Shown here: positions 44,395 to 61,864 of the stretch, piece after piece | Position numbering within the stretch: position 1 is the stretch's first letter | How the letters are laid out: every line of letters starts with the position of its first letter | From: Homalodisca vitripennis | Taxonomy: Eukaryota; Arthropoda; Insecta; Hemiptera; Cicadellidae | Length of the DNA stretch: 64,000 bases | Direction of reading: 5' to 3' | NCBI RefSeq assembly: GCF_021130785.1 | Contig: NW_025777932.1 | Location: forward strand, 1-64,000 | Position numbers and translations under genes: made by a program | The notes under the pieces: model-generated | Database searches by the model: none | What the model was told of the DNA's origin: nothing | What the model saw: the letters and a program-made list of their open reading frames with translations, nothing else

Positions 44395-44396
<2 letters not shown>

Positions 44397-45010
44397 TAGA
44401 TATGAATATGCCGGTTCTAGACCACTTTTGGGACACACAGAAAATCAAGGGAAAATACTGTTTAAAGGACAATAAACGAATCTGTAAAATCAAACAGTAA
44501 GGGGGTTCCTAGACCACTTTTGGGACAGACAGAAAATCAATGTAAAATACTGTCCATTGAACCATAAACAAATCTAATAAAATCTAACAGGAAAGCACGA
44601 ATGTTAAATAACCGAATCTTTAGCTGTTTTACTGTTCAATGTTTGCTTCTACATTAATAAGCTGTTTTAATGAAAAAATCAAAAAATCTTAATAAAAAAT
44701 CTTTATTCTACAAAGTTAATTGTAACACAGTCTTTATCTTTTATAGTCTTCTTTCCAGTAACAATCAAGTGTAATTTTTCATTTTTGTTTAATTCTTTAA
44801 TCTTTTTCTCATCCAAAACAGTCAAAAATCTGTTCGGTAAGTGTACTTTACAATCTTCCAACTCGGCAATTATTGTAAACCCGAATTTATCTTTCATTTT
44901 CTCCAAATTCAAGATTCTATGTTTCTTTTTTTCTTCTAATTCATTTAACTTCTTATACTCTTTAAACTTACATTCTCCAATATCATTTAACTCTTTCAAG
45001 AACTCCATTT
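44395..45010. repeat. left terminal inverted repeat
   Basis: It matches the inverse of 61244-61864. The outer 308 bp differ by two substitutions and three one-base homopolymer length changes. The match continues with almost no change through most of the small gene at 44703-45008, then falls to partial similarity over its last ~85 bp (that gene's N-terminus). A block containing CTAGACCACTTTTGGGAC occurs twice within the repeat, about 95 bp apart (44418 and 44510), so the repeat has an internal direct duplication. Confidence 0.93.
44703..45008 (-). CDS. small TIR-encoded protein, left copy (101 aa)
   Basis: Intact frame. Residues ~1-35 are charged and helical (KFKEYKKLNELEEKKK). Residues ~36-101 look beta-rich, with KFGFTIIAELEDCKVHLPNRF and ending VTINFVE. 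Small proteins with the pattern 'G..(I/V)..LED.KV.LP.RF' recur in arthropod Polinton-like elements. Its size and strand pattern would suit an OB-fold nucleic-acid-binding protein, but that is inference. The start ATG lies directly behind the element's promoter motif TTTTTTCTATTTAAATGG. The right TIR carries a second copy whose last two thirds are near-identical while the first ~30 residues differ. Confidence 0.8.
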   Translation of the reverse strand: MEFLKELNDIGECKFKEYKKLNELEEKKKHRILNLEKMKDKFGFTIIAELEDCKVHLPNRFLTVLDEKKIKELNKNEKLHLIVTGKKTIKDKDCVTINFVE

Positions 45011-45099
45011 AAATAGAAAAAATTTAAAGACGGAAAAAATGAAATTTGCTAACAATCACTCGAGAAGTCGGGGAGAATGTGAGTAAAACCGCATTCTTT

Positions 45100-45535
45100 T
45101 CAAGAGGTTCTTCGTTTTAATTTCTCCAAATGTACTATAAAATCATCGAGGATTTCTGGTTCAAAATCATAAACAAATTCAACATCCAGATAATGAAAAA
45201 ATACAGGTAATATCTTTTCATAATAAACGTGTGTATCGATACCCTACAAACCTAATGTATTCTTTGAAAAGGAAAATAATTTTGTCAATGGTTCCAAGAG
45301 ATAAGTAAAAATTTTTATTCTGTTTTCTAAATTCTGTAACAAATTTTGTTTGCTTCTTGTCTCCATATTGCAATTTTGTAAGCAGGTTATTCAAATGTGT
45401 TAATTTATTTCGAAATTTCTTAGGTTTAGGTCTTTCTAACAAAATTAAATTACAACCTCTACAAACTAAATATCTTTTATCGATAATTTCTCCTCTATTA
45501 GAACACTTGTAACAGTTGGCATTATACTCTTCCAT
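45100..45535 (-). pseudogene. zinc-ribbon protein resembling viral late transcription factor 3
   Basis: The N-terminus has a zinc ribbon, CYKCSNRGE...LVCRGCNLILLE (residues ~9-38). After it comes a basic stretch and LTHLNNLLTKLQYGDKK, which resembles the 'INHFNEWLSKLQG' block after the zinc ribbon of VLTF-3 proteins of large DNA viruses. The frame breaks near 45225. An open continuation to a stop at 45100 (ending EKLKRRTS) would give about 145 residues. VLTF-3-like factors act at late promoters, and the abundant TAAATG-type motifs of this element make that role attractive. It shares a 24-bp divergent promoter region with the plus-strand gene at 45560. Zinc ribbon sure; VLTF-3 assignment tentative. 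Confidence 0.6.
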
Positions 45536-45559
45536 TTAAACAAAAAGATTTTTTTATAA
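45536..45559. promoter_or_regulatory. 24-bp divergent promoter region
   Basis: Between two start codons facing away from each other, each side carries its own TAAATGG/TTAAATGG end, so the whole reads CCATTTA...TAAATGG, an imperfect palindrome. Both halves fit the element-wide start motif (T-rich stretch then TAAATGG). It leaves almost no room for an untranslated leader. Confidence 0.65.
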
Positions 45560-45781
45560 ATGGAGATTATGGAACTAAGTCTGCCGAGATATAAATTTTT
45601 CAGCGCAAATGTTTGTGTTTACATTTCTACAACAGAGATAAATAGAAATAATTTCATTCTATTGTACAACTATTTAGGATATTATGTGTACGATTATAAA
45701 GATTATTACGGGAGAAATCGGGATTTTTCAGTGGCGAAAGAGTATATTTTTGAAGTTTTAGAAGGAAATGAAAGAGAATAA
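45560..45781 (+). CDS. small unrecognised protein (73 aa)
   Basis: Intact frame opening at ATGGAG directly behind the TTTTTTTATAAATGG motif, which is why this ATG is chosen. The protein is rich in Tyr, Asn and Asp (NYLGYYVYDYKDYYG near residues 38-52) and ends in a short acidic helix. It has no signal peptide or membrane segment and I recognise no family. It is one of the few plus-strand genes of the element. The promoter motif and intact frame argue that it is real. Confidence 0.6.
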   Translation: MEIMELSLPRYKFFSANVCVYISTTEINRNNFILLYNYLGYYVYDYKDYYGRNRDFSVAKEYIFEVLEGNERE

Positions 45782-46425
45782 TATGAACATCATCAATTAT
45801 TGTAAAAGACAAAATGAATGATTGTGTCTTTGGTGTAGTGTTGTTAGTGTGCGTGTTTGCGCTATGGGGAATCACATCACATTCAACTTCTACGGTGTCT
45901 ATTGTTTAGAGACTTGGCCCTGCACTGCTACTGTCCAACCAAGTTAATGGCTAGGAGCTGTAATTCGGGTCTTAGACTCTGGAATTTTTTTGTTCCCAAG
46001 TCTCATTTTTTCTTTGGTAACTACTGTGTAGAAGTTGATGGAGAGATACAATTAGGGAATTTGTGTCGGGGTGTTTTGTAAGTGTAATGTTGTATTAATG
46101 AATGATGTGAATGATGAATGTAATGAACGAATTAAGGAAGAGAAGGAATGTACGAATTAAGGAAGAGAAGGAATTAAGGAATGAAGTGGAAAGGTGAGGA
46201 AGCAAATGGCGCGCCAACCACAGTTGTCATTACTCGGCTTGTTCTATAGTCATTACACTATGGCCACTCGTGTAAAGACTTGTCCCCAACCACTGAACGA
46301 CAACCATGTCTTCCTCAATTAAAAAGCGCGCCTGAAGCTCTGGGATTTGAACCCAGAACCTCAGGCTTTGAAGGCAAGCGTCTTACCAACTGAGCTACGG
46401 AGAGTCTCGAAAGTTATAAGCTATA
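45782..46425 (-). mobile_element. tRNA-derived SINE or pseudo-tRNA insertion
   Basis: On the minus strand, 46386-46397 is a box A (TAGCTCAGTTGG) and 46343-46353 a box B (GGTTCAAATCC), with a clear T-arm (CTGGG/CCCAG). This is the internal RNA polymerase III promoter of a tRNA. The acceptor strands on either side do not pair (CTCTCCG against AGCTTCA) and the anticodon stem is poor, so it is not a working tRNA gene. Downstream on the minus strand lie ~500 bp of non-coding sequence with a tandem repeat of TTCCTTAATTCGT-like words at about 46115-46185, as expected of a SINE body. The exact limits are uncertain. It interrupts the Polinton between its left gene cluster and the capsid gene. Confidence 0.6.
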
Positions 46426-47031
46426 TCTCTGCTATATAAGTTGTTCAATTAGGAGTGCTAGTTTACAAATTTATTAATAATTTTATATTTAAAAACCACT
46501 CAACCGATTTTAATGAAATTTGGTACACATATAGTAAATACTTAACTCTTTCGACTTAACTTATCCATAAGGGTGAAATCATCCCCTATTTCTTAATATT
46601 CATAAAAAAATAAAAAAAATTATCAGAAAAATCTGAAACTTCAAAAACAAGCGAGTTCAACTTAAAATTTCATGAAAATAACAAAATTTTCAAAAACTAC
46701 CCCAATCATCCCTTATCTTAAAACTCTTATATCTCGAGAACTATTGGAGCTTTTTTGCTGAAATTTGGTATATAGGATCAGTAAATATTAAAGTATTTTT
46801 TAAAATCATAACTTCCGGTCCAACCCTTAAGATGACCTTGGAATAGTTTTTTGTTAATATCATCCCATTTTTTAAGATATTCTTTTGAAATTAAAAATGA
46901 ATACTTATATCAATGTCTTTAATAATTCTGTAAAGTTGTAGAATTATCCGATGAATAATAGTGAAAATAACGTGATTTTTACTGAATTTCTCTAATATCG
47001 TTCTTAATCACATCATAGGCCTAAAAATTTC
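46426..47031. other. non-coding segment with insect repeat words
   Basis: No open frame. It contains CAACCGATTTTAATGAAATT at about 46502 and a weaker second copy near 46750-46780 (GCTGAAATTTGGTATATAGG). These are variants of a motif also seen at 24.45 and 36.82 kb outside the element. It is probably part of, or a neighbour to, the SINE-type insertion rather than Polinton sequence. Confidence 0.5.
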
Positions 47032-48176
47032 TCAGAAACCACAACAACATAACAAATTCGCGTTTGTAACAGCTTTTTGAAAATCCATATTGATAATTAT
47101 ATCGTTCTTTGAACCAGAAATATTTGTCAAACTCTTTGTTGTATCAATGACATAAATAGGTCTATTCGCTAAAAATTCTTTAGGATTGTAATACATTTCC
47201 TTATTATTACAGTAAACTTTCTTAAAATCTTGATACATCTGATACATGATTCTGAAAAGACCTCCGGAAATGTTTAAATTTTGTAATTCATCTGGATAAT
47301 AAGAACCGTTCAATTTTACTCTGATATTTTTTACATCCAAACTATCAAACTTTGAAGGATTTTTTTCTTGATTATTCTGTCTATCTGTTTGAAAACCTAT
47401 AATAATGTACTTGGGATTGAAGATGTTTCTATAAATATTTGTGATATCGAACGAATAAGTTGTTCCGGAAATACCTTTTTGCTCAATACATTGCCAATCT
47501 AGAAAATTAAACATAATGTTTTGACTTTTTGTAATTTCATCAATCAACCTTATTTTACTCGTGATTTTATAATCAATCATTGGAACCCTAATAAAAAAAT
47601 CTGTAATTGTTATTTTTCCATCAACTGGCATATCATTTCCAGTTTTTGTTTTTAATATCGCATCATCGTCTTCTGCCCTTATAAAACTTAGATAAAATCC
47701 TCCTTTATAGATCGGAATAGTAACATTTTCAAAAAATCCTAATCCAAAATGAGATAAATTTCCAGCTGCTTCAAAAACACCAAATTTAAAATCTGATTCA
47801 AAGCCATTAGAAGTTTGAGAAATAACATCACTTTTTGAATACGAAAATAGTTCCTTTAATTGTGCTTAATTGGCCACAGTTTTCGACTTCTTCTATCAAT
47901 TTATTGTGTTTTCTTACTTCAATCTTAGAAAATAAAAACGGTATAAAATTATCGATTAATCTAACATTATCAGTTCCAAGATATGCTTGACCATCTTGTT
48001 TTTGTTAAAGTTCCAGAAATATAAAACTGGAAGTTAGACGAGCAAAAGTTATCTCCAAAATCAATATTAAACTCAGTTCTTTTATTCGGTTCATTCAAAT
48101 GTTGTTTACTAATTGGATAGAAATTTTTAAACTCCGCCCTTTCAATATCACTAGCATATTTTCTGTAGTCCGCCAT
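47032..48176 (-). pseudogene. major capsid-like protein (double jelly-roll candidate)
   Basis: The start is fixed by the promoter motif TTCTCTTATTAAATGG on ATG 48176. The frame breaks near 47970 and again before 47640. The C-terminal 199 codons (47032-47631) are open. They contain IRVPMIDYKI, FNFLDWQCIEQKGI, YIIIGFQTDRQNNQEKNPSKFD and VKLNGSYYPD, then YQMYQDFKKVY. The 'A.QT.R......N.S.FDH/S' plus 'LN...YP' blocks are hallmarks of the capsid protein shared by insect Polinton elements. The whole would be about 380 residues, shorter than vertebrate Polinton major capsid proteins. The role as major capsid is from family resemblance only. Confidence 0.75.
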
Positions 48177-48288: not shown

Positions 48289-48688
48289 TTAATGATCTAC
48301 TTCGTCATATTCAGGATTCTCTTCCTTAAATTTTGCGATCTCGGTCACATATTTCAATAAAATTTGCACAGGATAGTAACCGCTATCTATAATATTGTTC
48401 CAATCAACTGTATCTTTATTTTCATCCAAAACTTTATACTCAAGTGTTGATAGAGACAAAGAACAGACATATGATCTTTTAATTGATAATGTATATTTTC
48501 TTGAATGAACTCTGATGATAAAGTTTGATATTTTGCAATGTTATACCAATTCAATTTGTTTTACGTATAATTCTCATCATATCTTCGGATAATTCATATT
48601 TTTGAGAAATGTCATCCCAATGTTCTTTTTTCAAATCTCTTTCGTGTTGCATTATAAAAAGATCGAAAGCACTGTAATGTCCCGCCAT
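48289..48688 (-). pseudogene. small protein with tryptophan/'YQxLS' repeats
   Basis: ATG at 48688 lies 3 bp after the stop of the preceding gene and 7 bp behind a TTTTTTCTTAATAAAT copy of the start motif. The first ~45 residues read open (FDLFIMQHERDLKKEHWDDIS, then KYELSEDMMR). A frameshift near 48545 leads to a segment with WYNIAKYQTLS. A second frameshift near 48440 leads to DWNNIIDSGYYPVQIL and a stop at 48289. The recurring unit 'W..I..YQ.LSE.F(I/M)' resembles short helical repeats found in phage and giant-virus proteins of unknown role. I cannot name a function. Confidence 0.5.
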
Positions 48689-48690
48689 CT

Positions 48691-48861
48691 CTATTTATTA
48701 AGAAAAAATTTCAAAATCAAGTTTTTTATAAATTGGCTCTTTTTAGCGTTACATTCAGCACATTTTCCAGATATTCTCTTAACTCCGTTAATGTTTGCAT
48801 AGTATTTTATATCGTTTGTGGCAGTTTTCTCTTTACATCTCACACAATATATGAGCGCCAT
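48691..48861 (-). CDS. short zinc-ribbon protein (56 aa, DUF5679-like)
   Basis: Intact small gene. ATG 48861 lies directly behind TTTTCCTTATATAAATGG. Residues ~5-43 form a two-CxxC zinc ribbon, YCVRCKEKT then GKCAECNAKKSQFI. The pattern 'CV.C..KT......G....G.C..C...KS.FI' is a small domain common in Polintons and large DNA viruses. It is often free-standing, or fused in front of an integrase. A second version heads the integrase of this element at 57033. Its likely role is nucleic-acid binding, unproven. Confidence 0.75.
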   Translation of the reverse strand: MALIYCVRCKEKTATNDIKYYANINGVKRISGKCAECNAKKSQFIKNLILKFFLNK

Positions 48862-48875
48862 TTATATAAGGAAAA

Positions 48876-49258
48876 TTAGTCATCGTAACCACCTACTCCA
48901 TTAAATCTGTTGTCGATGTTTTCAAAAGTTTTATCGACATCTTCTTTAAATTTATTAAAGTTTTCTTCTAGTTTATTTACTTTATCGAGATATAAATCGT
49001 TGTATTCAAGGAGTTTATGATCAATATTCTCAAAAGTTTTTGTGGCATCTAAACTAAACTTATCAAAAGACTGCTTATTTTTTATAACTTTTTCATTAAT
49101 TTTCGCCAAAGTTTTTCTTCTAGTTTAATTAATTTATCATGAAGTAAAGATTGATTAGTAACTACTCTTTCAAAAACTTCACCATTTTTTCTATCGGTTT
49201 CATTAAAACCCTCTTGAAATTTAGCGAAATCTTCCAAAAAGTTTGTTATTTTTTCCAT
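48876..49258 (-). pseudogene. coiled-coil protein, possible virion fibre component
   Basis: Begins at the internal ATG 49258, 14 bp behind a CAATCTATATAAAGG variant of the start motif. The frame shifts near 49095-49110 from KLIKLEEKLWRK into the open frame 48876-49109. That frame carries two copies of a heptad-like unit, KTFENIDHKL and KTFENIDNRF. The product would be almost entirely helical, ~125 residues. Its partner upstream is the fibre-like gene 49291-50014. A trimeric stalk role is inference from heptads and position. Confidence 0.5.
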
Positions 49259-49290
49259 AAAGATCGCCTTTATATAGATTGAAATTTTCC

Positions 49291-50014
49291 TCAAAATTTG
49301 TAAATTTTTTCATCATAATTTTCTATAGATCTTTTACTTCTTTCTTCAAGTTTTTCATAGACTTCTGTTGTAAAATCTTTAACATGCTGTTTATGATTCT
49401 CATAATTTTGTTTTAGTTCATTAAACATTTTAATAGGATCTTCTAATTGAATCATTACAACAACATCAAATGGATTAATTCCTTTACTAACACCGCTAAT
49501 TCTTTTTCCTTTAAAATCTAAGGCATTTTTAACATTCGGATCATGTAAATCAACAATATCGATGTTTTCTGATAATTTTAGAGGTTTTAAAATTTGTTCT
49601 TTAACAACAACATCATGTTTGTCAATACCAGGTCGAACACCGACAATTCTTTTCTTATTAGCCAAACTACCATAATTCTTTTCAACTTTGATCGCTTCAG
49701 TAATTTCATCAGCTTTTTCGATGTGAGACATTAAATTGGTAAATAATTTTTTTACACCATCATCAACTTCTTTTTCCAATGTTTTTATTTTATCAGCAAC
49801 TTCATTTGAAACTCATGAAATTTGCAAGTTTGTTATCATATTCTGCTTTAAAATCTTCAATCTCGACAGCAAACATATCTGAATCTGGAAGGTTTTGTAA
49901 TACATTTTCTAACTTGTTATCAAACTCATTTCTCAAACTATCAAAATTCAAACTATTATCTACATTTTGAATAATTTGTGTTCCAAATACGTCAAAAATA
50001 TTTTGTGAATCCAT
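49291..50014 (-). pseudogene. fibre-like protein with paired 'KRIxGVxxGI' repeats
   Basis: The start at 50014 is set by the motif GCTTAATAAATATGG. The first ~70 codons (to ~49802) are open, then a frameshift near 49790 leads into the 162-codon frame 49291-49779. That part holds two related units about 50 residues apart, KKRIVGVRPGIDKHDVVVKE and GKRISGVSKGINPFDVVVMI, between helical arms. The pattern 'KRI..V..G....DAV...Q' is familiar from phage-type tail-fibre collars and adenovirus-like fibre shafts, where it links coiled-coil stalks. A receptor-binding or stalk role in the virion is inferred. Confidence 0.55.
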
Positions 50015-50399
50015 ATTTATTAAGCAATAATTTGTTAACAACTTCTTTAAAATCTTTACCAGTACTCAGTTCATTCAAAACAAAAACACATAAATGACCA
50101 CAAATTGGGGGATCTTTATAGTCTTGAATCTGAGAATCATTGTAGTAAACGCTTGATTTTTTCAAATATTTAATCAATTCTATAGGTGGTTTGTCCTCAA
50201 TTCTTCCATACGAATCAAAATAAAACGCAATCTTATCATTTTTATAATAGCAAATCCAATGTGTTCCACTTCCCATAATCGAGTCTAAATTCACAATTCC
50301 ACATTCAAATTTCTTAACTTTTTCAGGTAATTGTATCTCTCATGAAGATTCCTCTAAAATGTTTAATATTTTTGCAGATTTCTTCCAATTCCCCGAATG
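49992..50399 (-). pseudogene. adenain-like cysteine protease (virion maturation protease)
   Basis: Peptidase of the adenovirus-protease/Ulp1 fold. The open part (49992-50294) shows the catalytic set in order: His in GTHWICYY (residue 12), Asp in FYFDSYG (27), a Gln in DSQIQ (55 or 57) and the nucleophile Cys in PPICGHLC (65). An N-terminal segment (ELEEICKNI...FRGIFMRDT) lies upstream in another frame at about 50340-50395, separated by a frameshift near 50325. In the group this enzyme trims capsid precursors during assembly. No start ATG is visible for the N-terminal segment. That frame runs back into a run of ten A residues at the end of the preceding gene. It overlaps the start of the fibre-like gene by about 20 bp. 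Confidence 0.85.
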
Positions 50400-50858
50400 T
50401 TAAAGGTTTAAATTTTTTTTTTCAATGTTTGATTTCACGTAATTCAAAGTTTTTTCATCTAATCCAGATCCTGTAACATCTTCCAACTCTTTATCTAACC
50501 AATTTAAAATGTTTCGAACAATAGGAATCACATCTTTTTTAACGATTGGAGCAGCTTTACGAACATAAGGAACAACATTTTTAACAACTGGAATATTTTC
50601 TCCAAAATCTAATAAATCTTTCAAAAGTCCACCATTTTTAAGTTCTTTCAACTGATTATAAGAAAATTCTATTCTGGTTCCTTTATTGTTTTTCTTATGT
50701 TTTTCGAGTTTATTGTATTGTCTATTTGTTAAAAATATCTTATCTTCGCCATTTTTTAGTTGATCTATTTTAAATTGAATACTAACGGGTATTTTCTTCT
50801 TAAAAGCGGATTTTATTTTTTCTTTCTGATTTTTGCTGAAATTTACGTTCACCTCCAT
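50400..50858 (-). CDS. basic/hydrophobic minor capsid-like protein (152 aa)
   Basis: Intact frame. ATG 50858 is directly behind TTTTAACTATATAAATGG, 8 bp after the preceding stop. The N-terminal half has two related units, FSKNQKEKIKSAFKKKIPVS and FLTNRQYNKLEKHKKNNKGT, followed by FSYNQLKELKNGG. The C-terminal half is a chain of short amphipathic segments (VVKNVVPYVRKAAPIVKKDV) ending with GSGLDEKTL. Insect Polintons regularly carry such a 'LTKNQ...K' repeat protein with a Gly/hydrophobic tail beside the protease and PLA2 genes. It is thought of as a minor core or membrane-active virion protein. It ends in an A-run across which the protease frame is open. Confidence 0.65.
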   Translation of the reverse strand: MEVNVNFSKNQKEKIKSAFKKKIPVSIQFKIDQLKNGEDKIFLTNRQYNKLEKHKKNNKGTRIEFSYNQLKELKNGGLLKDLLDFGENIPVVKNVVPYVRKAAPIVKKDVIPIVRNILNWLDKELEDVTGSGLDEKTLNYVKSNIEKKNLNL

Positions 50859-50866: not shown

Positions 50867-52177
50867 TTAAAATTTCAAGTTCTCTTCGATTCCCATTCCT
50901 AGTTTTCTCTTCAAAAACATTGCTCCAGCTGTTGGAAGCGCAACAAATCTTTCACCTAAACTAGCATCTTTTGATAAAAATCTATCCATTGCCTTATCTT
51001 GCAAAACTTTATCTGCGATATGTCTGGAATTTGTGTCTCTATGTTTTGCATAAAAAATATCGTGTTCCATAGCAGCTTGATCTAATTTATTTATACCAGG
51101 ATCTCCTCTTTTTAGTCTTTTTTCGAGTTTTGTGCCGGGCCCCAGATACTGATAAGTTGGTACGTGTAATTCAAAAGGTAAATTGTTGATAAAATCATTC
51201 AAAAGTCCACTACCCTCAATCATAGATGAACTTATTGCCGGCAAAACTCGTTTTAAATATTTAATTCCATCAGGTTTTTCAATCATTTCATCAAGTTTGT
51301 TCGAAATAAAATCTTTAATCGCTTTCTTTTCGTTCAAAAAATTGTTGTTTTCCAGCCTTTTCTTGAGCATAAATATAATTAATAATTCCATCGAGTTTTG
51401 TCAAATCGTCGATATATCTGTATTCAATCTTATTATCACTGTATTTTCTCACACCTGATCCTTCGATTCTTTTTTCCCAAATTGGTTTAATCAAATTGAG
51501 ATATTTTTTACCTTTACTTGACTTTGGTTTCTTAGTTGATGGATCATTATTTTTGTAAATTGAATCAGATTTCCATAAAATTTCAGTATACTTTTTCAAG
51601 TCTTCTTCAGAATATAAACCGTCTTTTGGAAACATCAGTGCCTGTTAATAATCTCCATAAACCTTGAGTTCCTTCATATGTTTTTTCATTAATAATGATA
51701 TCATTATGTTCAAAATTCACGGGCAAATTTCCAATCATAAAACTTTTCTTTTTTCTGTCCCAATACAAACCAAATTTATCATCCTTTGCTCTAGGAAGAA
51801 ATTTTTTACCAATTTCACCCAATTATTATATCCGTTGTTCCAGGACTTATTGGTTCAACTATGGTAGAGTCTTCAATGATTCGAGGTCTAAATGGTGTTG
51901 AAGATGGTAATTTTGGCAATTCAAACTCAGATTCTGGTATCGAAATATCAGCAAATTGTCGTACAACTGGAACCAAATTCATCAAATTTTGATTATCGCT
52001 TAAAACATTTTCAATTTTGCCCTCAACATTTTTTATTGCAGATGTTACAGGTTGATTAATTTTTTGAATAAATTCTTGTTCTTTTTCATCAATTCGAATC
52101 TGTTCTTTAAATTCTTTGATTAATTTCTTTTCTATTTGATCAAGTTTTTTCGCTTCTTCAGAAGTTACGTTCGCCAT
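50867..52177 (-). pseudogene. phospholipase A2-bearing capsid protein (VP1-like)
   Basis: One gene of about 435 codons in four frame pieces (breaks near 51818, 51620 and 51350). The start at 52177 lies behind TTTTTCTAAATAAATGG. Order: a charged coiled-coil and Pro-rich head (51815-52177); a LPRAKDDKFGLYWD...GTQGLWRLLTG segment (51607-51822); NNDPSTKKPKSSKGKK (51315-51635); and a C-terminal PLA2 domain (50867-51391). The PLA2 domain shows the Ca-binding loop YLGPGT (residues 82-87 of the last piece) and the catalytic D..A.EHD..Y (104-114), with the His-Asp pair intact. Parvovirus VP1 and adintovirus capsid proteins use this domain to breach endosomal membranes. It ends in GMGIEENLKF. Confidence 0.88.
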
Positions 52178-52194
52178 TTATTTAGAAAAATTTT

Positions 52195-52395
52195 AAACGT
52201 GGAACGTAAAACGTGAACACGAAACGTGAACACGGAACGTAAAACGTGAACGTGGAACGTGAAACACGAACGTGAAACGTAAACACGAACGTAAAACATG
52301 AACGTGAAACGTAAACACGAACGTGAAACATGAACGTGAAACATGAACGTGAAACATGAACGTGAACGTGGAAACGTGAACGTGGAACGTGAACA
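52195..52395. repeat. minisatellite of AACGTGAA-type units
   Basis: About 200 bp made of 6- to 12-base words built on GAACGTGAA, AAACGTGAA and ACACGAACGT, in direct tandem. It lies between the PLA2 gene start and the end of the ATPase gene, where no promoter motif other than that of the PLA2 gene is needed. ACGT occurs more than 15 times, many times the local expectation. It has no coding potential. Confidence 0.9.
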
Positions 52396-54148: not shown

Positions 54149-54425
54149 ATGGAGTCAGTTGTGGATCTGCTCAATAACCAACTTACATTCGATAACACGA
54201 ATATCTTAACTATTGTAGACGAAAACAATGTGATCTGGTTTTAAGGCTAAAGATGTTGTAGAAATATTAGAATATGAAAACACTAGACAAGCAATCATAT
54301 TAAACGTTGATGATGATGACAAAATTCAATATTTTTACTTAAAAAACAAGGGTCTATTCGAATGGCCCCTTAACAATCTTCATCCCTGTACTGTTTTTAT
54401 TAATGAACCAGGTCTCTCAAAATAA
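54149..54425 (+). pseudogene. BRO-N gene fragment 2
   Basis: The start ATGGAGTCAGT lies directly behind TTTTTTCTTTCTAAATGG. It reads LLNNQLTFDNTNILTIVDEN, then, after a one-base shift in TGGTTTTAAGGC, KAKDVVEILEYENTRQAIIL and DDDDKIQYFYLKN. It is cut off after INEPGL by a stop at 54425. About half of a BRO-N domain is present and the C-terminal part is missing. It is arranged head to tail with the fuller copy that follows. Confidence 0.65.
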
Positions 54426-54454: not shown

Positions 54455-55226
54455 ATGGAGTCAGTCATAGATCTAAGAAATAATCAACTAAAAATTCAAT
54501 AATAAAGAAATTTTAACAATTGTTGACGAAAATAATGAATTTTGGTTTTAAGGCTAAAGATGTTGCAGAAATATTGGAATATAACAATACAGAAAAAGCG
54601 ATTAGAAATAATGTCGATGAAGGTGACAAATCTCAATACTTTTATCTAAAAGATAAGGTAGCCCTCGAGGGCCACCTCGCAAATATTCACAAAGATACTA
54701 TTTTCATTAATGAATCAGGACTTTATTCGTTAATTTTAAGATCTCATAAAATAGAAGCAAAAAGCTTTCAACAATGGGTTACGAGAGATGTTTTACCAAG
54801 CATTCGTAAATTTGGTGTGTACAAACTTGAAAACAAGATTAAATATTTAGAGGACAAAGTTAAGCACTTGCAAATTAAAGATGAAATCAAAACGGAAATA
54901 ATTGCAAAACAAAGTGTAAAAATTGACTTAATGAAACCAGATCTTGTTTGTAAAGATTTTGATAAGAAAAAACACCATGTTTTTGTGTTAATTAAGAAGA
55001 ATCACATGTGGGAATGGCCTTTATTACGTTATCAGAGCTCAAAAGAGAGAAATACCGAAAAGATTGAAAAGAACTTGAAATTGATTACCCAGAAATGGAA
55101 ATTTTATTAAGACATGGAGATCCAAATAGTATAAATCTCTACAACCAAATGAAAGAATCTTTGAATATTTTATACAACGGAAATCATTTTACTACAAATA
55201 TGGCAGAATCTCGACTGATTTTATAG
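54455..55226 (+). pseudogene. BRO family protein (BRO-N domain plus BRO C-terminal region)
   Basis: The promoter motif TTTTTTCTATCTAAATGG fixes the start at 54455. The head carries a stop after 15 codons and then the same TGGTTTTAAGGC shift as fragment 2. The long open frame (54520-55110) has FKAKDVAEILEYNNTEKAI, INESGLYSLILRSHK and FQQWVTRDVLPSIRK, the complete BRO-N signature. A coiled-coil linker follows, then VCKDFDKKKHHVFVLIKKN. Past frameshifts near 55015 and 55085 comes the BRO C-terminal block with DYPEMEILLRHGDPNSINLY, ending at 55226. BRO proteins of baculoviruses, entomopoxviruses and phages bind DNA and chromatin; here the likely role is regulation of host or viral DNA. Confidence 0.85.
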
Positions 55227-55255: not shown

Positions 55256-55591
55256 CTAAATTTTACTAAAAACTCTCGATTTATTATATTTTGTTTGTAA
55301 ATGTTTAGCATAACTAGGTAACCATTGTAGAATTCTTTTTTCATATTCACAAGGCATTTCGTTTTTATAACTTTCGCTGAAAATTTTTTTAGCACAATCT
55401 TTGCAAAAAGCATCTTTTCTATCTTTACTATACTGCCAGTTATTAAATTCAGAAATATTTTTAATTTCTTTACAAAAGTAACACTTTTTCTCTTCTAAAG
55501 TTAATTTGTTCATTTTAACGTATAATTCCTTACAATAACAGTCTTTTCTATTCTCTTCTTGACACTTTGTACATTTCTTTTGAGACTCCAT
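55256..55591 (-). CDS. small zinc-finger protein B (111 aa)
   Basis: Intact frame. ATG 55591 is directly behind TTGTTCTATATAAATGG. It has three Cys clusters: KKCTKCQEENRKDCYCKE (residues ~5-22), CYFCKEIKNISEFNNWQYS, and FCKDCAKKIF. A final segment is CEYEKRILQWLPSYAKHLQT. The 'CxxCK..K....F......DG...C.DC' pattern is that of small treble-clef zinc fingers often linked to HNH-type nucleases in large DNA viruses, but no HNH catalytic histidines are evident. It is a tandem paralogue of gene A upstream, sharing the start ME(A/S)QKKC, the middle finger, the HLQTKY end and the 3' flank AACATTTTCATCGTGTAA. Confidence 0.65.
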   Translation of the reverse strand: MESQKKCTKCQEENRKDCYCKELYVKMNKLTLEEKKCYFCKEIKNISEFNNWQYSKDRKDAFCKDCAKKIFSESYKNEMPCEYEKRILQWLPSYAKHLQTKYNKSRVFSKI

Positions 55592-56010
55592 TTATATAGA
55601 ACAAATTATTACACGATGAAAATGTTAAACTCTTGAATTTATGATATTTTGTTTGTAAATGTTTTTGATAATTATTTAACCATTTTATAGTTCTTCCACA
55701 TTCACATTGAGTATCTTCATAATATAATCTATGGTGATTCTTCTTTACACAATCATTACAATATGAGTCTTTCTTATCTCTAGTATAGTGATCACTATTA
55801 AACTCTGAAATTTTTTTAGTTTCTTTACATTTAAGACATTCTTTCTCTTCCAAAGTTAATTTTTTCTATTTTATCATACAGCTCTTTATGATACTTCCTA
55901 TAACAATCTTTACAATTATAAATAATTCCATCTTTTCTACTCTTATCTTTATAAAATTCTTCAAAACCTTTTAATTCTTTGCACATTGAACATTTCTTTT
56001 GGGCCTCCAT
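55592..56010 (-). pseudogene. small zinc-finger protein A
   Basis: ATG 56010 is directly behind GATTTTTTCTATATAAATGG. The first ~50 codons read KKCSMCKELKGFEEFYKDKS and a NCKDCYRKY finger. A frameshift near 55860 leads into an open frame from 55853 with CLKCKETKKISEFNSDHYTR, SYCNDCVKKNHH and CECGRTIKWLNNYQKHLQTK. It keeps the first zinc finger that gene B has shortened. The minus frame stays open past the start of gene B, so the real C-terminus is uncertain. Confidence 0.6.
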
Positions 56011-57033
56011 TTATATAGAAAAAATCTTGACTTTCTCAATTCATATTCATAAAACTTTCCGGTTATTTCTTCATTATTTAAATCTTTTATACTATAAGTT
56101 ACAGGATCTGTGTTATTAATTTGATAAATCACAAAGATTTCTCTTGACCAATTGTTCTTATATTTGTTCGAAAATGTTTGTTTTTTACTAACAATTCTTA
56201 CATGATCATTGACTTTAAATTTAGTTTTCGTGTGAATTTCAGGTGGAACATACTTGAAAACGGTCTCTAATAACTCCTTTTCTGCATCCTTATCTACGTC
56301 TTTCGGTTTCATTTTGATTGTGCTGTGAACTGTATCGTTATAATTGTTTACGATTTTTTGAAGAATATCGATCCATTTAAAGTTTTTATTAATCTCAAAA
56401 ATTACTTTCATTCTCTCATTTTGAGTTCTGTTATATCTCTCTACAATACTTGATTTCTCTTCGTTTTCAGTATGATAAATCTTAATGTTGTATTTCCTCA
56501 AAACATCGTTAAGTTCTTTATTTTTAAACTCTAAACCCTTATCTGTATGAAGTAGGTTAGGAGGTTTGTGATTGATCCTTATGGCATCTCTTACTATATC
56601 TTCGAAAGCTTTTGAAATATCCTTGCCGTTTTTTCTTTTGATAGCTCTTGACCAAGCATATATTTTGAGAAAGTATCAATAACATTTAACATATACTTAA
56701 ATCCATCATTTTGATCTGAATAGTTAGGACATTATAACTAAATCTGCTGCCCATAAATCTTCAATTCCTAATGTTATAATTTTTCTCTTTTTTAAACTTT
56801 TTTCGTACTGGTGCATGAATTTCTCGAGCTTCAATCTCTATCTCATCTTTAGTCTTCAATTCTTGCTTAACAGGTTTTGGATTTGGATTCTTTATAAACT
56901 TACTCTTGTTTGTCTTACATTTTGAACATTTTGCTGCAATTCTATACAACCCGTTTTGAGTTTGAACGATTTTAGAATCTATATTTTTCGTTTTTTTCTT
57001 GCATTTGTGGCAGTGAATCAAATCATCTTCCAT
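55971..57033 (-). pseudogene. retroviral-type integrase with N-terminal zinc ribbon
   Basis: The first 90 codons (56761-57033) hold a zinc ribbon, HCHKCKKKT...AAKCSKCKTNKSKFI, then a basic linker with ARE(I/L)HAPVRKKFKK that normally leads into the integrase core. Frameshifts near 56770, 56690 and 56510 follow. The catalytic triad is readable: Asp in DLWAADLV (about 56736-56767), Asp in HTDKGLEF (about 56523-56550) and Glu in SSIVERYNR (about 56427-56460). The C-terminal frame 55971-56501 adds an SH3/chromo-like tail with FKVNDHVRIVSKKQTF and WSREIFVIYQI. The enzyme inserts the element with 6-bp staggering, agreeing with the TATATA duplication. The start overlaps the PolB stop as TGTAAATGG. 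Confidence 0.88.
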
Positions 57034-60000
57034 TTACATGTCAAAGTTTCCAAGTTTATTTAACTCATCTAATATATCAGATTTTGCTTCATTTTTATAG
57101 CCATAAGGTACTGTATCGATCTTATTTTCTAGAACGATTCTCTTATCATCTTTAGCGTTCAGTGCCAGCTTGTTTATGGTAACTGTGTACAATTCATGTT
57201 TATAGCTTTTTATTACAGTCATCTCCCTAAATTCTTCTTTATCTTCGAACAAACATCTCTTCAAGTTTTCGATATTTATTGTTTTATTTACAACGCTTCT
57301 CTTAATTCCTTTACACCTAACTGGGTTTTTATCTAGATATTTGTACGAGTACATCTTAGACCTTAAACCACAAAATTCTTCTAAAACTTCGCTATTTAAC
57401 TCATCTTTGAATTTCCCTATTACCTTCTTATTTTTAGTATAGTGAAACATTCATGATCTTTTGGATAATCACTTGTATCAAAGTCATCTATATTTTTCTT
57501 TAATAATTTTAAAAGGATCTCGTTTCAATTCTAGGAAATAACTGTCTGTATCCATGTAACACAGATTCAAATCTGGATCAAACTTCTTTAATTTGTTGTA
57601 ATAAAACTCGTACATTAGCAATTTTGAGAGGTCGAGAACTGAAAATCCTATGTAAATCGGTTTGTTAAATTTAACATTTTGTTTGTACATGTGACTCGCT
57701 ATACAGTTGTCGTCAAAGATGTTAAAGCATTTGAAATTTGTTTTCTTAGCTTGTTTCATTGAAAATTCTTCATTTCCAAGCTTAATATCACATCTGTTTT
57801 CTCACATTTTCCATAGATTTTCCAAAAACTGAGTTGTTCATCAGCTTATAAAAATCCTTCTCAAAGTCACTTTTAGCTTTGGTCCTCATATTAGTATTAA
57901 AATCAATGTACTCTTTCATAAAAGGCTTCTGATCGAATGCAATAACTCTATTCACATGTTTCAAAATCATACCTTGTTCCAAATAGAACTTCAAATTTCT
58001 CGAATGAACAACGTATTCAGTTTTATCCAGTAGAGTTGTGCAAAGTTTGTTTTTTAAAATGTTCTGGAGCAAGAGGTAAATCCTTGTGATGTTCGTGTAA
58101 ATTTGTTGGATATCCAAGATCGACTTCGAGAATATAGCCATAATCTTCGTCGCCAGTGAGTTCTAAAATTGTTTCTTGCCACTCTTCTTTTGTATACGTT
58201 TTAGGATCCATCCACTTGATATCACTAAACGGCAGTTTTTGCATAAGACCATACCCATAAAGGTTGTTTGCATCGAGGATAGAGTAAATAGTTTTCGGGC
58301 TTTGTCTTATCAAAATCTTTTAAATATTTGTTATTTGCTTTCACATATCGCTTAATACACTGAGAAATGCCTCCGCGAATACCTTTTTCGATCATTAAAT
58401 ACATATTATAATCACTAATTAATTGTAATTCTATCTTCGTTAATTTTAACATAGCATCCCATGCAAGACTGGGAGCTGTTAGATAGTGTGCTGGATCAAG
58501 CTTATAGCAATTCAAACAAATATTCCTAAAATTTTTCAAAGATATCAGCGAGCAATAAAACATCTTGAATGTTGTACAAATCAGAATAATTTCCCAGATT
58601 TTTCTCTTTTAATTTGTTCCAAACATTTAAGTAGTGTTGATAATCTTTCTCAGATATGCTCTCATCTGTCAAGAGTGAATAGAAATCTTGAATTTTCAGC
58701 TCTTCTTTGTAATCAAGTTTTTCAATACTGTCGATAAATTCATAGGGAAATATTCCTTTTCCAGATAGAATTTTAAAGATTTCTTCTTCGTCATTTGGCT
58801 GTCTTTCTATTATCTCATTCAGTCCATCTTGTATAAAATGATTTGTATGTTTGAAGTCTTCTCTCTTTAGATTTTTAGCTAACTTTTCTATAGACGAGGC
58901 CATGAATCTGAACGTGTCTACAAACGAAAACTTGATGAACTTTCTAGGTTTGTCACCATCAAATTCATACCCGTATCCAGAATTTACAGAGTAATTTATA
59001 TATCGTTCATCGGTGTTTGCAATCAAATCAACATTACCGTATTGTTTTGCCAATTCTTTTATGTACAAATGCGTATCGTAATTAGACATATTGTGACAGA
59101 AAACGGGAATATTCTGAGGAAATTTCAAATTCAGATTACAAATTCTATGAGCTGCACCTCGAAATTTTCCAGTCAAATGACAGTGATCTCTGCATTTTTT
59201 GAATGCATCATAAGCAGAACTCCAATTATCTGGTAAAAACCCTAAAGTTTTTTCAGTGTCTTGATACGATATTTCTTCACAAATGTGGCAAAGATTTGAA
59301 TTTTGATACGAAATTTCTTCTTCGTCAGTCAATTTCATGGGCTTCATGTTCTTTGAATTATATTTTTTAGCTATGTACTTCGATAATTTATTGAGTTCTT
59401 CAAACAATTTTGCAGGAACGTTCGGCAACTCTTCTTCATTTTTTGCTCGATAACATATCGGCTTGTACATACGATTGGTCACATTAGACACTAAATATAG
59501 AGTAAAACCATAAGGAATATGCTTCTGAATCTTGGTTGTAGTCGATTTTTGCGGATTGTTTTTGCATGTGGGAATCTTCTCTAATATGCTCTCAAAGTCC
59601 ATATAAATTACGTACGGATGGTTAAATTTCTTTTGATAATTAGTAAATTTAGTTGTTTGACCTGGAAATGGCATAATTGGCTTACAAACTTCATGATTTT
59701 TACAAATTTCTAAGTGATCTGTTAAATCTCCAGATTTGTAAAAATGGCTTAAACATCTTCGACACAAGAACGTCTTGTGAGCATTTTTTGATATCTGTGA
59801 ACTCGCTAATCTACTTAAATCTGTTATCAAAACATAATGGGATTTATCATCTTGTTTAACATACAATAAATCAACTTCTAACTTGGCGTCATAAACTTCT
59901 GAAATTTGCAACGGTACTATGTGTAGTTTTTCATTCAAAAGTATAGACATTTACAGACATTTTCGGATACTTGTACTTTGCTTTGCTGCTTCGTTTTTCA

Positions 60001-60983
60001 AATAATTGTATATCTTTAAAGACATAGGATAGTCGAATCCAGAAAATATCTCATCGTTCACGAATTTTTCGTATTGTTTTGCTCTGTCAACATGAGTCTC
60101 GGGTTTTTCAATAGCGCATCGGATAGAGTAAATAAAGCAATAATCATCTTTATTTTTGATATTTACACAAGCTTTTTTATCTTTGATTTCCTTTGGTAAA
60201 TCGATATATGATCCTGCGTTCATAAATTCATGTTTATTAAGGCTCAAAACTAGTTGTTTACAACTTTTAAATGTCCATCCGGAACCTTTATTTGGATTAT
60301 TCGTTTGTTCTCGATGTGTTAATTTATTAAATTGCTTAGTAATAAAGTCGTTTACGTCAAAGATTTCGTCTGCTTTGATAGTAAAATACATTAGACATGT
60401 TTGCGGTTCACCATTCACTAAAGTTCGTTCGTATTCACATTCCAAAGAGAGATAGCCCTTCATATTTTTAACATTTTCTTGAAATTTCTCGATTAAACTT
60501 TTAATTTCTGACCGCATAATTGAAAGATATTTGTAAATTGACATGGAACTGTCGTTCAAGTTTGTTAAAATGTATTGCTTGAAAAGACCGTGTATTGAGG
60601 ATAAAACTTCTACATCAATGATATTTTTAGGTTTTTCGTTAAGAGTTTTGTCAATTTCTTCGATCATTTCAGACTTAGTTTTATCGTTTTGTTTCTAAGG
60701 ACAATTTTTCAGCGATTGATTGAATTTTTTCATCATTAAATAGATTGAGATCTTTTTTACTTTCCTTAAAAATTTTTCTTTAGTTCACGCAATTTTTTCT
60801 ATATTGTACATCTTCTCGTGACCATCGATTTGATTCTCTTTAGCCCATTGTCTTAAATAATTCAATTCTTTATTATAAATTTCTTTGTTCTTCAAATGAT
60901 TTTTCGAATTGTAATGACGAGTATAGTGATGTTCAAAAATGTCCTTTTTTGCAGTATGGGCACTCTATCTTTTTCCGCTCCAT
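57034..60983 (-). pseudogene. protein-primed DNA polymerase B (Polinton pPolB)
   Basis: About 1,310 codons in pieces. ATG 60983 lies behind TTTTTGCTCTTTAAATATGG and opens a C2H2-like finger (CPYC...H...H) that is frameshifted near 60945. Further breaks lie near 60790 and 60680. The frame 59951-60667 ends at one in-frame TAA, and the same frame continues at 59950-58526 with a zinc-binding CRRCLSHFYKSGDLTDH. Exonuclease motifs: MDFESIL (~59600), NMSNYDTHL (~59085), YNIQDV (~58575). Polymerase motifs: RGGISQC (~58360), LDANNLYG (motif A, ~58270), NNSVFGKSM (motif B, ~57830), YMDTDSYF (motif C, ~57550). Breaks lie near 58540, 58300, 58050, 57775 and 57470. All catalytic acidic residues are preserved, so the lesions are recent or artefactual. 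Confidence 0.93.
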
Positions 60984-61187
60984 ATTTAAAGAGCAAAAAT
61001 TTGTAAACTAAAATTTTGAGAAGTAGTGATTTTTGTGACAACTTGACACAAATCAGCACAATTTCTGGTCAAATGTTTTCAGATTGTTCTATTTAAAGAG
61101 CAAAAATTTGTAAAATTAAATTTTGAGAAGTAGTGATTTTTGACACAAATCAGCACAATTTCTGGTCAAATGTTTTCAGATTGTTCT
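60984..61187. repeat. tandem duplication upstream of PolB (107 + 97 bp)
   Basis: 60984-61090 and 61091-61187 are near-identical direct copies starting ATTTAAAGAGCAAAAATTTG and ending CAGATTGTTCT. The second copy lacks ten bases (GTGACAACTT) and has a few substitutions. Each copy contains the PolB start-motif sequence (inverse of CAAATTTTTGCTCTTTAAAT), but only the first is followed by an ATG. Confidence 0.9.
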
Positions 61188-61192
61188 ATTTG

Positions 61193-61240
61193 TTATAGAA
61201 AAATCTTTTAACTAAATTTAGTTAAAAGATTTTTCTATAA
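61193..61240. promoter_or_regulatory. 48-bp perfect palindrome carrying the start motif on both strands
   Basis: Each 24-base arm runs from TTATAGAAAAATC to the centre AAA|TTT at 61216/61217, with no mismatch. The right arm supplies GATTTTTCTATAATAAATGG, the start motif of the right TIR gene. The left arm supplies the same T-rich motif leftwards but without a following ATG. It lies just inside the right TIR. The left end has no equivalent. Confidence 0.85.
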
Positions 61241-61243
61241 TAA

Positions 61244-61555
61244 ATGGCAGCGCTGTTACAAGAGTTGAATAAGGTTGGTGAACTAAGATTCAAAGAATAT
61301 AAGAAATTAGTGGAATTGGAAGAAAAAAAGAGATATAGAATCTTGAATTTGGAGAAAATGAAAGATAAATTCGGGTTTACAATAATTGCCGAGTTGGAAG
61401 ATTGTAAAGTACACTTACCGAACAGATTTTTGACTGTTTTGGATGAGAAAAAGATTAAAGAATTAAACAAAAATGAAAAAAAATTACACTTGATTGTTAC
61501 TGGAAAGAAGACTATAAAAGATAAAGACTGTGTTACAATTAACTTTGTAGAATAA
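61244..61555 (+). CDS. small TIR-encoded protein, right copy (103 aa)
   Basis: Intact frame behind TTTTTCTATAATAAATGG. From residue ~35 on, its sequence equals the left copy at 44703-45008 except for one extra Lys in NEKKLHLIV (left NEKLHLIV), a clean 3-base difference. The first ~33 residues differ at about a third of positions (MAALLQELNKVGELRFKEYK against MEFLKELNDIGECKFKEYKK). So the two gene copies share a homogenised C-terminus and have separate N-termini. Both copies point outwards. Confidence 0.82.
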   Translation: MAALLQELNKVGELRFKEYKKLVELEEKKRYRILNLEKMKDKFGFTIIAELEDCKVHLPNRFLTVLDEKKIKELNKNEKKLHLIVTGKKTIKDKDCVTINFVE

Positions 61556-61864
61556 AGATTTTTTATTAAGATTTTTTTGATTTTTTCATTAAAACAGCTT
61601 ATAAATGTAGAAGCAAACATTGAACAGTAAAACAGCTAAAGATTCGGTTATTTAACATTCGTGCTTTCCTCTTAGATTTTATTAGATTTGTTTATGGTTC
61701 AATGGACAGTATTTTACATTGATTTTCTGTCTGTCCCAAAAGTGGTCTAGGAACCCCTTACTGTTTGATTTTACAGATTCGTTTATTGTCCTTTAAACAG
61801 TATTTTCCCTTGATTTTCTGTGTGTCCCCAAAAGTGGTCTAGAACCGGCATATTCATATCTACT
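61244..61864. repeat. right terminal inverted repeat
   Basis: Inverse of 44395-45010. It ends CATATCTACT at 61864 and is followed by TATATA (61865-61870). Differences from the left copy in the outer 308 bp are two substitutions and three single-base changes in homopolymers. Confidence 0.93.

What the first reader, a model, noticed from the sequence alone, without database searches (positions are those of the whole stretch)
44395..61864. Complete Polinton/adintovirus-like element with an expanded gene set
Ends, TIRs and a 6-bp target duplication are all identifiable. All core virion, replication and integration genes are present, together with PLA2, BRO, VLTF-3-like and several zinc-ribbon genes. 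The gene content points to a virus-like lifestyle rather than a plain transposon. The combination of tandem BRO genes, a VLTF-3-like factor and a uniform start motif is not something I know as described for one insect Polinton.
Basis: partly seen in the sequence, partly recalled or inferred. Interest (0 to 1): 0.88.

Follow-up and report, generated by a model that had tools for sequence, protein, structure and literature searches.

The report
Leafhopper endogenous virus with swappable BRO
This is one damaged copy of a virus-like mobile element with dozens of close relatives in the genome of a sharpshooter leafhopper; the copies have exchanged pieces with one another, and they carry a DNA-binding gene whose front end comes in several distinct interchangeable versions.

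Summary
The observation largely holds. A Polinton/Maverick element spans 44395-61864, with ~630-bp inverted repeats and AG...CT ends. The host is Homalodisca vitripennis; 90 places (the scoring limit) match its polymerase piece at 91% or more. This copy is not intact: most long genes are frame-broken, some perhaps by assembly error. Other copies hold open frames for MCP, penton-like protein, A32-type ATPase, integrase, PolB, a PLA2 protein and a Bro-N+DUF3627 BRO. PLA2 is already known in insect Mavericks. VLTF-3 stays unconfirmed; one 'zinc-ribbon gene' is the integrase N-terminus.

Beyond the finding: (1) Bro-N occurs as five discrete types (52-77% identical) in copies whose flanks differ by ~2%; type does not follow flank. 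(2) Four-gamete failure is 81% and 54% in two flanks (clonal simulations: mean 1-4%, maximum 42%); ATPase, integrase and penton-like genes show purifying selection. (3) 14 of 17 gene starts carry TAAATGG, a poxvirus-late-type start signal. (4) 16 of 19 left flanks are (TA)n. Best reading: an endogenous adintovirus-like virus with an exchangeable BRO specificity module. New variant of a known kind.

The parts
44395..45021 (.). left terminal inverted repeat, terminus AGTAGATATGAATATGCCGG, with an internal 82% sub-repeat
   Evidence: terminus found in 19 of 20 left-end loci, 16 of them without any edit
61230..61864 (.). right terminal inverted repeat
   Evidence: right termini found in 6 of 6 copies examined
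44703..45008 (-). 101-aa TIR-encoded ORF (left version), function unknown
   Evidence: 101-aa frame in 11 of 20 left-end loci; TAAATGG start
61244..61555 (+). 103-aa TIR-encoded ORF (right version, different N-terminus)
   Evidence: TAAATGG start
45218..45535 (-). zinc-ribbon + helical protein ('VLTF-3-like'), 105 aa here, 168-169 aa in 11 of 20 left-end loci
   Evidence: VLTF-3 homology not significant
45560..45781 (+). short ORF with TAAATGG start
45802..46980 (.). length-variable insert between MCP and the zinc-ribbon gene; absent in two copies
47032..48176 (-). double jelly-roll major capsid protein, broken here (pieces 47032-47865, 47970-48176); 397-aa frame in 12 of 20 left-end loci
   Evidence: PF21738 6e-26 here, 6.6e-31 on an open copy
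48289..48688 (-). 132-134 aa protein, unknown
48706..48861 (-). small zinc-ribbon ORF with TAAATGG start (assignment by eye)
48876..50065 (-). coiled-coil protein in pieces; about 393 aa open in L041
49992..50339 (-). adenain-like (C5) protease candidate
   Evidence: PF00770 E 0.013-0.015, below cut-off
50400..50858 (-). 152-aa protein, unknown (virion candidate by position)
50867..52177 (-). protein with phospholipase A2 domain near its C-terminus; one 435-aa frame in L045, four pieces here
   Evidence: PF08398 4e-11 here, 3.4e-10 on the open frame, residues 335-396
52190..52400 (.). GTGAACGTG-type tandem repeat, variable between copies
52476..53166 (-). A32/FtsK-type packaging ATPase, broken here; 220-225 aa in 11 of 20 mid regions
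   Evidence: PF04665 2.5e-9 on an open copy
53207..53908 (+). penton-like protein, broken here; 244-246 aa in 12 of 20 mid regions; name recalled, no family hit
54149..54425 (+). BRO1: truncated Bro-N cassette (91-aa frame in five other copies)
   Evidence: Bro-N 8.4e-10, 7e-14 in an open copy
54455..55110 (+). BRO2: Bro-N + DUF3627 BRO protein, frame-broken here; 266-277 aa in 13 of 20 mid regions
55256..55591 (-). CxxC zinc / endonuclease VII-like protein A (111 aa)
   Evidence: PHROG 2633 1.3e-5
55548..56010 (-). CxxC zinc / endonuclease VII-like protein B (127 aa in 16 of 20 mid regions), tandem paralogue
   Evidence: PHROG 1035 6e-15 and 5558 2.7e-15 on an open copy
55971..57033 (-). rve integrase with N-terminal zinc ribbon (one 339-aa frame in 12 of 20 mid regions)
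   Evidence: rve 4.2e-12 on an open copy
57034..60983 (-). protein-primed PolB, in at least five pieces here; 1318-aa frame in L009
60983..61191 (.). two ~107-nt direct repeats upstream of PolB
   Evidence: D5, D9

Best explanation
The element is one copy of a multi-copy Polinton/Maverick (adintovirus-like) family in the leafhopper Homalodisca vitripennis. Shown: long inverted repeats, 6-bp target duplications, and a strong preference for (TA)n insertion sites. Various copies keep open frames for PolB, integrase, ATPase, jelly-roll capsid, PLA2 protein and BRO. ATPase, integrase and a penton-like gene show purifying selection among open copies. The copies have exchanged segments so often that many site pairs a few hundred bases apart show all four allele combinations. 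The BRO gene has an exchangeable N-terminal DNA-binding domain (five discrete types in 13 copies) on a common C-terminal DUF3627 domain, with spare Bro-N cassettes upstream in some copies. Inferred: the copies come from, or passed through, an episomal virus-like phase (protein-primed replication, packaging, reintegration) in which co-resident genomes recombine. BRO is a DNA-binding regulator whose target specificity is switched by swapping Bro-N, as with phage anti-repressors and immunity modules. The frequent (T-rich)TCTATNTAAATGG start signal is a transcription or leader-start element shared by its genes. The window copy is a non-functional or poorly assembled member.
For: Copies: 90 matches to the PolB piece (the window itself at 100%, the others 91-99%), 30 of them in stop-free frames of 1300 aa or more. 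All 20 mid regions examined share colinear matches with the window over ATPase, penton and BRO; L030 was offset, so its integrase lay mostly outside. Host: relative P0136, named H. vitripennis, lies on a contig of 211258354 bases, the length of contig C3 here, and matches it 100%. Frames and domains. dN/dS: ATPase 0.06, integrase 0.08, penton-like 0.14. Recombination: four-gamete failures 835 of 1035 and 718 of 1326 site pairs in two coding flanks of 19 copies; clonal simulations give a mean of 1.4-4.4% and a maximum of 42%. Bro-N: 52-77% aa identity between types while the C-terminus is 85-100%. Flank divergence does not follow Bro-N type (4181 and 1184 of 5000 permutations reach the observed difference). 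Diversity peak at BRO. Target: 16 of 19 left flanks have at least 25 of 30 bases in TA phase, against 122 of 46190 window positions outside the element. Starts: 14 of 17 with TAAATGG.
Against: No virion, transcript or episome was examined. The PolB HMM did not hit this family's PolB, so that assignment rests on relatives and motif columns. Penton and protease rest on weak or recalled evidence. Gene conversion between integrated copies could also give mosaicism. The dN/dS values use only copies with open frames, which favours low values; MCP, PLA2 protein and PolB were not tested for selection. In the zinc-integrase flank only 41 of 394 site pairs closer than 200 nt fail the four-gamete test, and the rise with distance is irregular there. 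Low-diversity windows also occur outside BRO (0.000-0.002 in parts of that flank), so near-identity within a Bro-N type is not unique to BRO, and the types were defined by that identity. The choice of some gene starts was guided by the motif. No operator that covaries with Bro-N type was found.
Confidence: 0.73

Rival explanations
1. Mosaicism and Bro-N swapping come from ectopic gene conversion and unequal exchange among integrated copies (tandem Bro-N cassettes recombining), with no viral phase needed.
For: Tandem cassettes and remnants lie upstream of BRO in some copies. Window BRO1 best matches type C (86% over 59 aa) while BRO2 is type A (99% over 92 aa). L012 (type B) and L029 (type E) share a 96% identical upstream spacer.
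Against: Exchange is pervasive in coding flanks too, between copies on different contigs. Purifying selection on the ATPase and penton-like gene suggests that virion functions mattered during spread.
Confidence: 0.35
2. Ordinary clonal transposon with passenger genes; the BRO types are old paralogues.
For: High copy number and insertions with target duplications.
Against: Flank divergence is unrelated to Bro-N type, and four-gamete failure is above every clonal simulation run.
Confidence: 0.08
3. TAAATGG is a host translation-start (Kozak-like) context or Pol II initiator in AT-rich DNA, unrelated to poxvirus late promoters.
For: No RNA polymerase gene was noticed in the frames scanned (no dedicated search was made). 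The VLTF-3 match is not significant. In two more distant relatives, L051 and L052, no listed start has TAAATGG and one each has TAAATG.
Against: Conservation extends upstream: TTCTATNTAAATGG in 11 of 11 ATPase, 13 of 13 BRO, 18 of 18 zinc-A and 16 of 17 zinc-B frames. TAA directly before ATG is an in-frame stop, unusual as a leader. The signal equals the published poxvirus late start TAAATG with an A/T-rich upstream (PMC3061580, passages).
Confidence: 0.5
4. The window copy is genuinely decayed rather than mis-assembled.
For: Most long genes are broken; some chromosomal copies are also broken, and L018 on a chromosome has 19 private frameshift indels. Three other unplaced contigs (L015, L020, L021) show only 0-4.
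Against: Private changes of the window in 3.25 kb: 10 substitutions but 15 frameshift indels, 10 of them single-base homopolymer changes; L027, on another unplaced contig, shows 3 and 8, all 8 in homopolymers.
Confidence: 0.45

Closest known systems
Insect Maverick/Polinton elements Sf Maverick 1 and 2 (PMC5803895, passages read)
   Same: PolB, rve integrase, A32-like ATPase, PLA2-bearing capsid-class protein, adenain-like protease, endonuclease VII signal
   Different: Sf integrase has a chromodomain, not found here; the word BRO does not occur in the text; here the PLA2 domain is near the C-terminus of a 435-aa protein, whereas the paper places it N-terminally in CAP
Drosophila-associated adintoviruses and Adintoviridae sensu Starrett/Buck (PMC8363768, PMC11071296, passages read; the defining paper is not held)
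   Same: size class, PolB + integrase + FtsK-type ATPase + protease + jelly-roll capsid
   Different: OTU-like PolB N-terminus and integrase chromodomain not detected; BRO module and TAAATGG starts not mentioned in the passages seen
BRO / phage anti-repressor families (Pfam Bro-N, DUF3627; PHROG 130 Ant)
   Same: Bro-N 2e-28 and DUF3627 2.6e-15 in the open BRO; anti-repressor PHROG 1.3e-35
   Different: here Bro-N types identical within and 52-77% identical between types coexist in one element family with a near-constant C-terminus and flanks
Oxyrrhis marina polinton-like virus with Bro-N-VRR-NUC (PMC12721341, passages read)
   Same: Bro-N in a polinton relative
   Different: different fusion partner, host and gene set; no allelic swapping in the passages seen
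Poxvirus late genes (TAAATG start; PMC3061580, passages read)
   Same: TAAATG at the start codon with A/T-rich upstream
   Different: no poxvirus transcription machinery identified; VLTF-3 homology unproven

Membership tests
Polinton/Maverick | long terminal inverted repeats and 6-bp target duplication | tested here: met
Polinton/Maverick | protein-primed PolB | tested here: met
   4977 relatives of the open frame among 7988 candidates scored, 70% identity to P0126 which hits PF03175 at 3e-23; direct Pfam scan of this PolB gave none
Polinton/Maverick | rve integrase | tested here: met
   4.2e-12 on an open copy; 5e-5, below cut-off, on the window piece
Polinton/Maverick | packaging ATPase and double jelly-roll capsid | tested here: met
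   PF04665 2.5e-9, PF21738 6.6e-31 on open copies
Polinton/Maverick | adenain-like protease | tested here: inconclusive
   PF00770 E 0.013-0.015, below cut-off
Polinton/Maverick | penton (single jelly roll) | tested here: inconclusive
   no supporting family hit; assignment recalled from sequence resemblance
Adintovirus (definition in PMC11071296) | PolB with N-terminal OTU-like domain | tested here: inconclusive
   no Pfam hit on the whole PolB; remote comparison not run
Adintovirus (definition in PMC11071296) | integrase with C-terminal chromodomain | tested here: not met
   no chromodomain hit on a 339-aa open integrase; a very divergent one could be missed
Adintovirus (definition in PMC11071296) | hexon recognisable by BLASTp to adintovirus hexons | not tested
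   reference hexons not at hand; one ORF each of two IMG/VR Polinton-like contigs, picked by size, showed no match to the MCP
Pox_VLTF3 | profile match PF04947 | tested here: inconclusive
   no hit in protein scans or the genome, where the control also rang nowhere; A2L_zn_ribbon E 0.036 for a relative only
BRO family | Bro-N domain | tested here: met
Virophage-like dependence on a large DNA virus | replication only with a helper virus | not testable with these tools

The most novel reading that the evidence does not exclude
An endogenous animal virus family carries a heteroimmunity-like module. Bro-N types are discrete DNA-recognition specificities that are kept diverse and swapped by recombination, so that a resident copy represses or excludes genomes of its own type but not of others. 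Its genes are fired from poxvirus-late-type TAAATG starts, possibly read by the late transcription machinery of a co-infecting cytoplasmic DNA virus, which would make the element a virophage-like parasite or defence of an insect.
Probability: 0.1. Interest if true: 0.92.

Novelty: new variant of a known kind. Interest (0 to 1): 0.62.

Why it matters
Whether Polintons are viruses or transposons is a long-standing question. A family with dozens of recombining copies, many with open genes, in one sequenced insect makes it testable from population-genetic data and virome reads. Discrete exchangeable Bro-N types give a way into what BRO proteins do, which is unsettled for insect DNA viruses (recalled). 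A start signal shared by 14 of 17 genes predicts exact mRNA 5' ends that existing RNA data could confirm or exclude. The (TA)n preference is a concrete target specificity of the family.

Tried and rejected
VLTF-3: profile scans, relatives, a whole-genome PF04947 search and a structure model (mean pLDDT 50, zinc hairpin plus helices) neither prove nor exclude it. Fold search of a BRO homologue: best match 4ye7 at E 0.047, not significant. IMG/VR scans: no relative with the PolB piece or the open BRO; two distant PolB relatives with a PolB alignment. Covariation of the BRO spacer with Bro-N type as a possible operator: the spacer follows cassette-array history, not type. TIR ORF as a CDI immunity protein (E 0.02-0.04, below cut-off): rejected as chance. 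The insert 45802-46980 as a TIR transposon: no terminal repeats found. Early reading of the window copy as simply decayed: left open by the indel pattern. The gene starts of two other Polinton families of the same genome could not be surveyed properly: 2.5 kb each, one TAAATG at an ATPase-like start in L060.

Counts and exclusions: the 20 mid-region copies were picked mostly for long open PolB frames, not at random; the 20 left-end copies are others. L030 was left out because it was offset. BRO statistics use the 13 of 20 copies with a frame of at least 245 aa (types of 7, 3, 1, 1 and 1 copies). Left-end statistics use 19 of 20 loci with a terminus found. Start-motif statistics use 17 starts; the protease and coiled-coil starts could not be set and were left out. 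Some starts were chosen with the motif in view; without the two short ORFs, the two TIR ORFs and the BRO1 cassette it is 9 of 12 (binomial 7e-18).


Full report
What is there. The flanking TATATA lies in a (TA)n run. Six other copies were examined at both ends: two outside such runs carry clean 6-bp duplications (GTCGTG, TCTATA), three have TATATA on both sides, and L032 has TATATA against TTTATA. The family makes 6-bp duplications.

Host and copies. The genome has 2.30 Gb in 14901 contigs; the window is contig C1818. A relative named Homalodisca vitripennis (P0136) lies on a contig of 211258354 bases, which is the length of contig C3 here, and matches it at 100%. The host is therefore this sharpshooter, a hemipteran. 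A 474-aa PolB piece gave 90 matches (90 scored of 12108 first-look candidates): the window itself, and the rest at 91-99% identity. 30 of the 90 lie in stop-free frames of 1300 aa or more. The copy count is a lower bound.

This copy is broken. PolB, integrase, ATPase, penton, capsid, the PLA2 protein and both BROs are split in frame or by stops. In two conserved pieces (3.25 kb) the window has 10 private substitutions but 15 private frameshift indels, 10 of them single-base homopolymer changes. L027, on another unplaced contig, shows 3 and 8; but three further unplaced contigs (L015, L020, L021) show 0, 4 and 0, and among the 15 chromosomal copies one (L018) shows 19 and the rest 0-4. Assembly error probably explains part of the damage; this is not settled.

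Gene content, read from copies in which the frames are open. MCP of 397 aa (double jelly roll 6.6e-31); A32-type ATPase of 220 aa (2.5e-9); integrase of 339 aa (rve 4.2e-12), which includes the supposed separate zinc-ribbon gene; BRO of 269 aa with Bro-N 2e-28 and DUF3627 2.6e-15. A 435-aa protein carries the PLA2 domain near its C-terminus. Two tandem CxxC proteins resemble endonuclease VII. A 169-aa zinc-ribbon protein is the 'VLTF-3'. A ~245-aa penton-like protein has no supporting profile hit; its name is recalled. PolB gives no Pfam hit itself, whole or in the parts scanned, but is 70% identical over 789 columns to P0126, which hits DNA_pol_B_2 at 3.3e-23, and the DTDS columns are invariant in a 12-protein alignment. 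In 5 of 20 mid regions all six genes examined there are open.

VLTF-3. The only pox-related hit is the A2L zinc ribbon, at E 0.41 for one copy of this family and 0.036 for a relative, both below cut-off; another copy and another relative gave none. PF04947 found nothing in the genome, but the control also rang nowhere. The model is low-confidence. The claim is neither proven nor excluded.

BRO is the unusual gene. In all 20 mid regions Bro-N sequence sits between penton and the zinc genes. Among 13 full-length BROs the first 120 residues fall into five types, 52-77% identical to each other and 100% within a type, while residues 165-262 are 85-100% identical. Nucleotide divergence of Bro-N is 0 within types (24 pairs) and 0.267 between (54 pairs); the within-type value follows in part from how the types were defined. 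Flank divergence is about the same within and between types (0.021 against 0.019 upstream, 0.015 against 0.017 downstream; 4181 and 1184 of 5000 permutations). Two alternative C-terminal cassettes combine with types A and B in all four ways (sequences). Five copies, like the window, carry an extra 91-aa Bro-N cassette upstream, and L030 may be a sixth; the window's cassette is closest to type C (86%) and its BRO to type A (99%). dN/dS in the four Bro-N segments is 0.14-0.49, so this is not simple positive selection; their synonymous divergence (0.45-0.58) is far above that of the C-terminal segments (0.00-0.07). The Bro-N types are therefore older than the present copies and have been swapped in. 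P0002, named H. vitripennis, is a further variant, 75% to type D.

The copies recombine. In 19 copies, informative site pairs fail the four-gamete test in 835 of 1035 cases (ATPase-penton; 179 of 293 under 200 nt, mostly 85% or more beyond) and 718 of 1326 (zinc-integrase; 41 of 394 under 200 nt, then irregularly 44-100%). Clonal simulations at 1.9% diversity give a mean of 1.4% (max 14.5%), or 4.4% (max 42%) with strong rate variation. Mean pairwise divergence in these pieces is 1.9%, range 0.6-3.5%. With dN/dS of 0.06 (ATPase), 0.08 (integrase) and 0.14 (penton-like) (open frames only, a bias towards low values), the simplest reading is a population of genomes that needed packaging functions and recombined while co-resident. 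Gene conversion between integrated copies remains a serious rival, and no empirical clonal control from this genome was run.

Start signal. The element has 16 TAAATGG on both strands; 14 are at gene starts, and 14 of 17 starts that could be set have it. In the rest of the window 12 of 1758 ATGs do (binomial 3e-28). Some starts were chosen with the motif in view; leaving out two short ORFs, both TIR ORFs and the BRO1 cassette, 9 of 12 remain (7e-18). The longer form TTCTATNTAAATGG is kept in 11 of 11 ATPase, 13 of 13 BRO, 18 of 18 zinc-A and 16 of 17 zinc-B open frames. Exceptions: penton, the 48.3-kb protein, and PolB (TTTAAATATGG). TAAATG after an A/T-rich stretch is the published poxvirus late start signal, also in an entomopoxvirus (PMC3061580, passages). 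Two IMG/VR relatives have no TAAATGG and one TAAATG each among the starts listed. TCTA boxes in mavirus/CroV late promoters are recalled, not looked up. Function is inferred only.

Target. 16 of 19 left flanks have at least 25 of 30 bases in TA phase, against 122 of 46190 window positions outside the element and 0 of 32701 positions in host flanks. L034, L044 and L046 do not.

Literature. PLA2, A32-like ATPase and endonuclease VII in insect Mavericks are in PMC5803895 (passages). Bro-N in some polintons is stated in PMC12721341 (passages). Searches for adintovirus, polinton with Bro-N (15), with phospholipase A2 and insect (16), with BRO and Maverick (22), with Homalodisca vitripennis (54), with late promoter (65), with insertion site and TATA (70) and with Hemiptera (94) listed no paper whose title or abstract start describes Bro-N type swapping, TAAATGG starts or (TA)n targeting in Polintons. 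Only passages of five papers were read (PMC11071296, PMC8363768, PMC12721341, PMC3061580, PMC5803895), and the main adintovirus paper is not held.

Verdict. A Polinton-class endogenous virus family, ordinary in core genes, with an unusual exchangeable BRO module, much recombination, a frequent shared start signal and a strong target preference. New variant of a known kind.

Noticed in passing
G000, e.g. C1:87067021-87070440 and 21 further rows: Another Polinton family of the same genome (62% PolB identity to P0136) has 22 rows with almost equal scores, 21 of them without stops inside, in frames of 1176-1789 aa; this suggests a recent expansion, though the copies were not compared with each other.
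   Followed up: no
45802-46980: Insert between capsid and zinc-ribbon genes whose length varies among copies (about 19, 1200, 1330, 1820, 2000 nt between anchors) and is absent in L035 and L036; no terminal repeats found.
   Followed up: partly
P0123: An H. vitripennis gene model named splicing factor 3A subunit 2 carries near its start a fragment of the element's zinc-ribbon protein: a fused annotation or exon capture.
   Followed up: no
52190-52400: GTGAACGTG-type tandem repeat between the PLA2 protein and the ATPase, variable between copies.
   Followed up: no
62027-62581: Reverse-transcriptase-like ORF just outside the right end (by eye, Penelope/LINE-like).
   Followed up: no
44703-45008 and 61244-61555: The inverted repeats lose similarity inside an ORF, so the two versions share most of their length but differ at the N-terminus.
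   Followed up: partly
contigs C1818 (window) and C839 (L027): Excess of single-base homopolymer indels over substitutions in these two unplaced contigs; three other unplaced contigs (L015, L020, L021) do not show it.
   Followed up: partly
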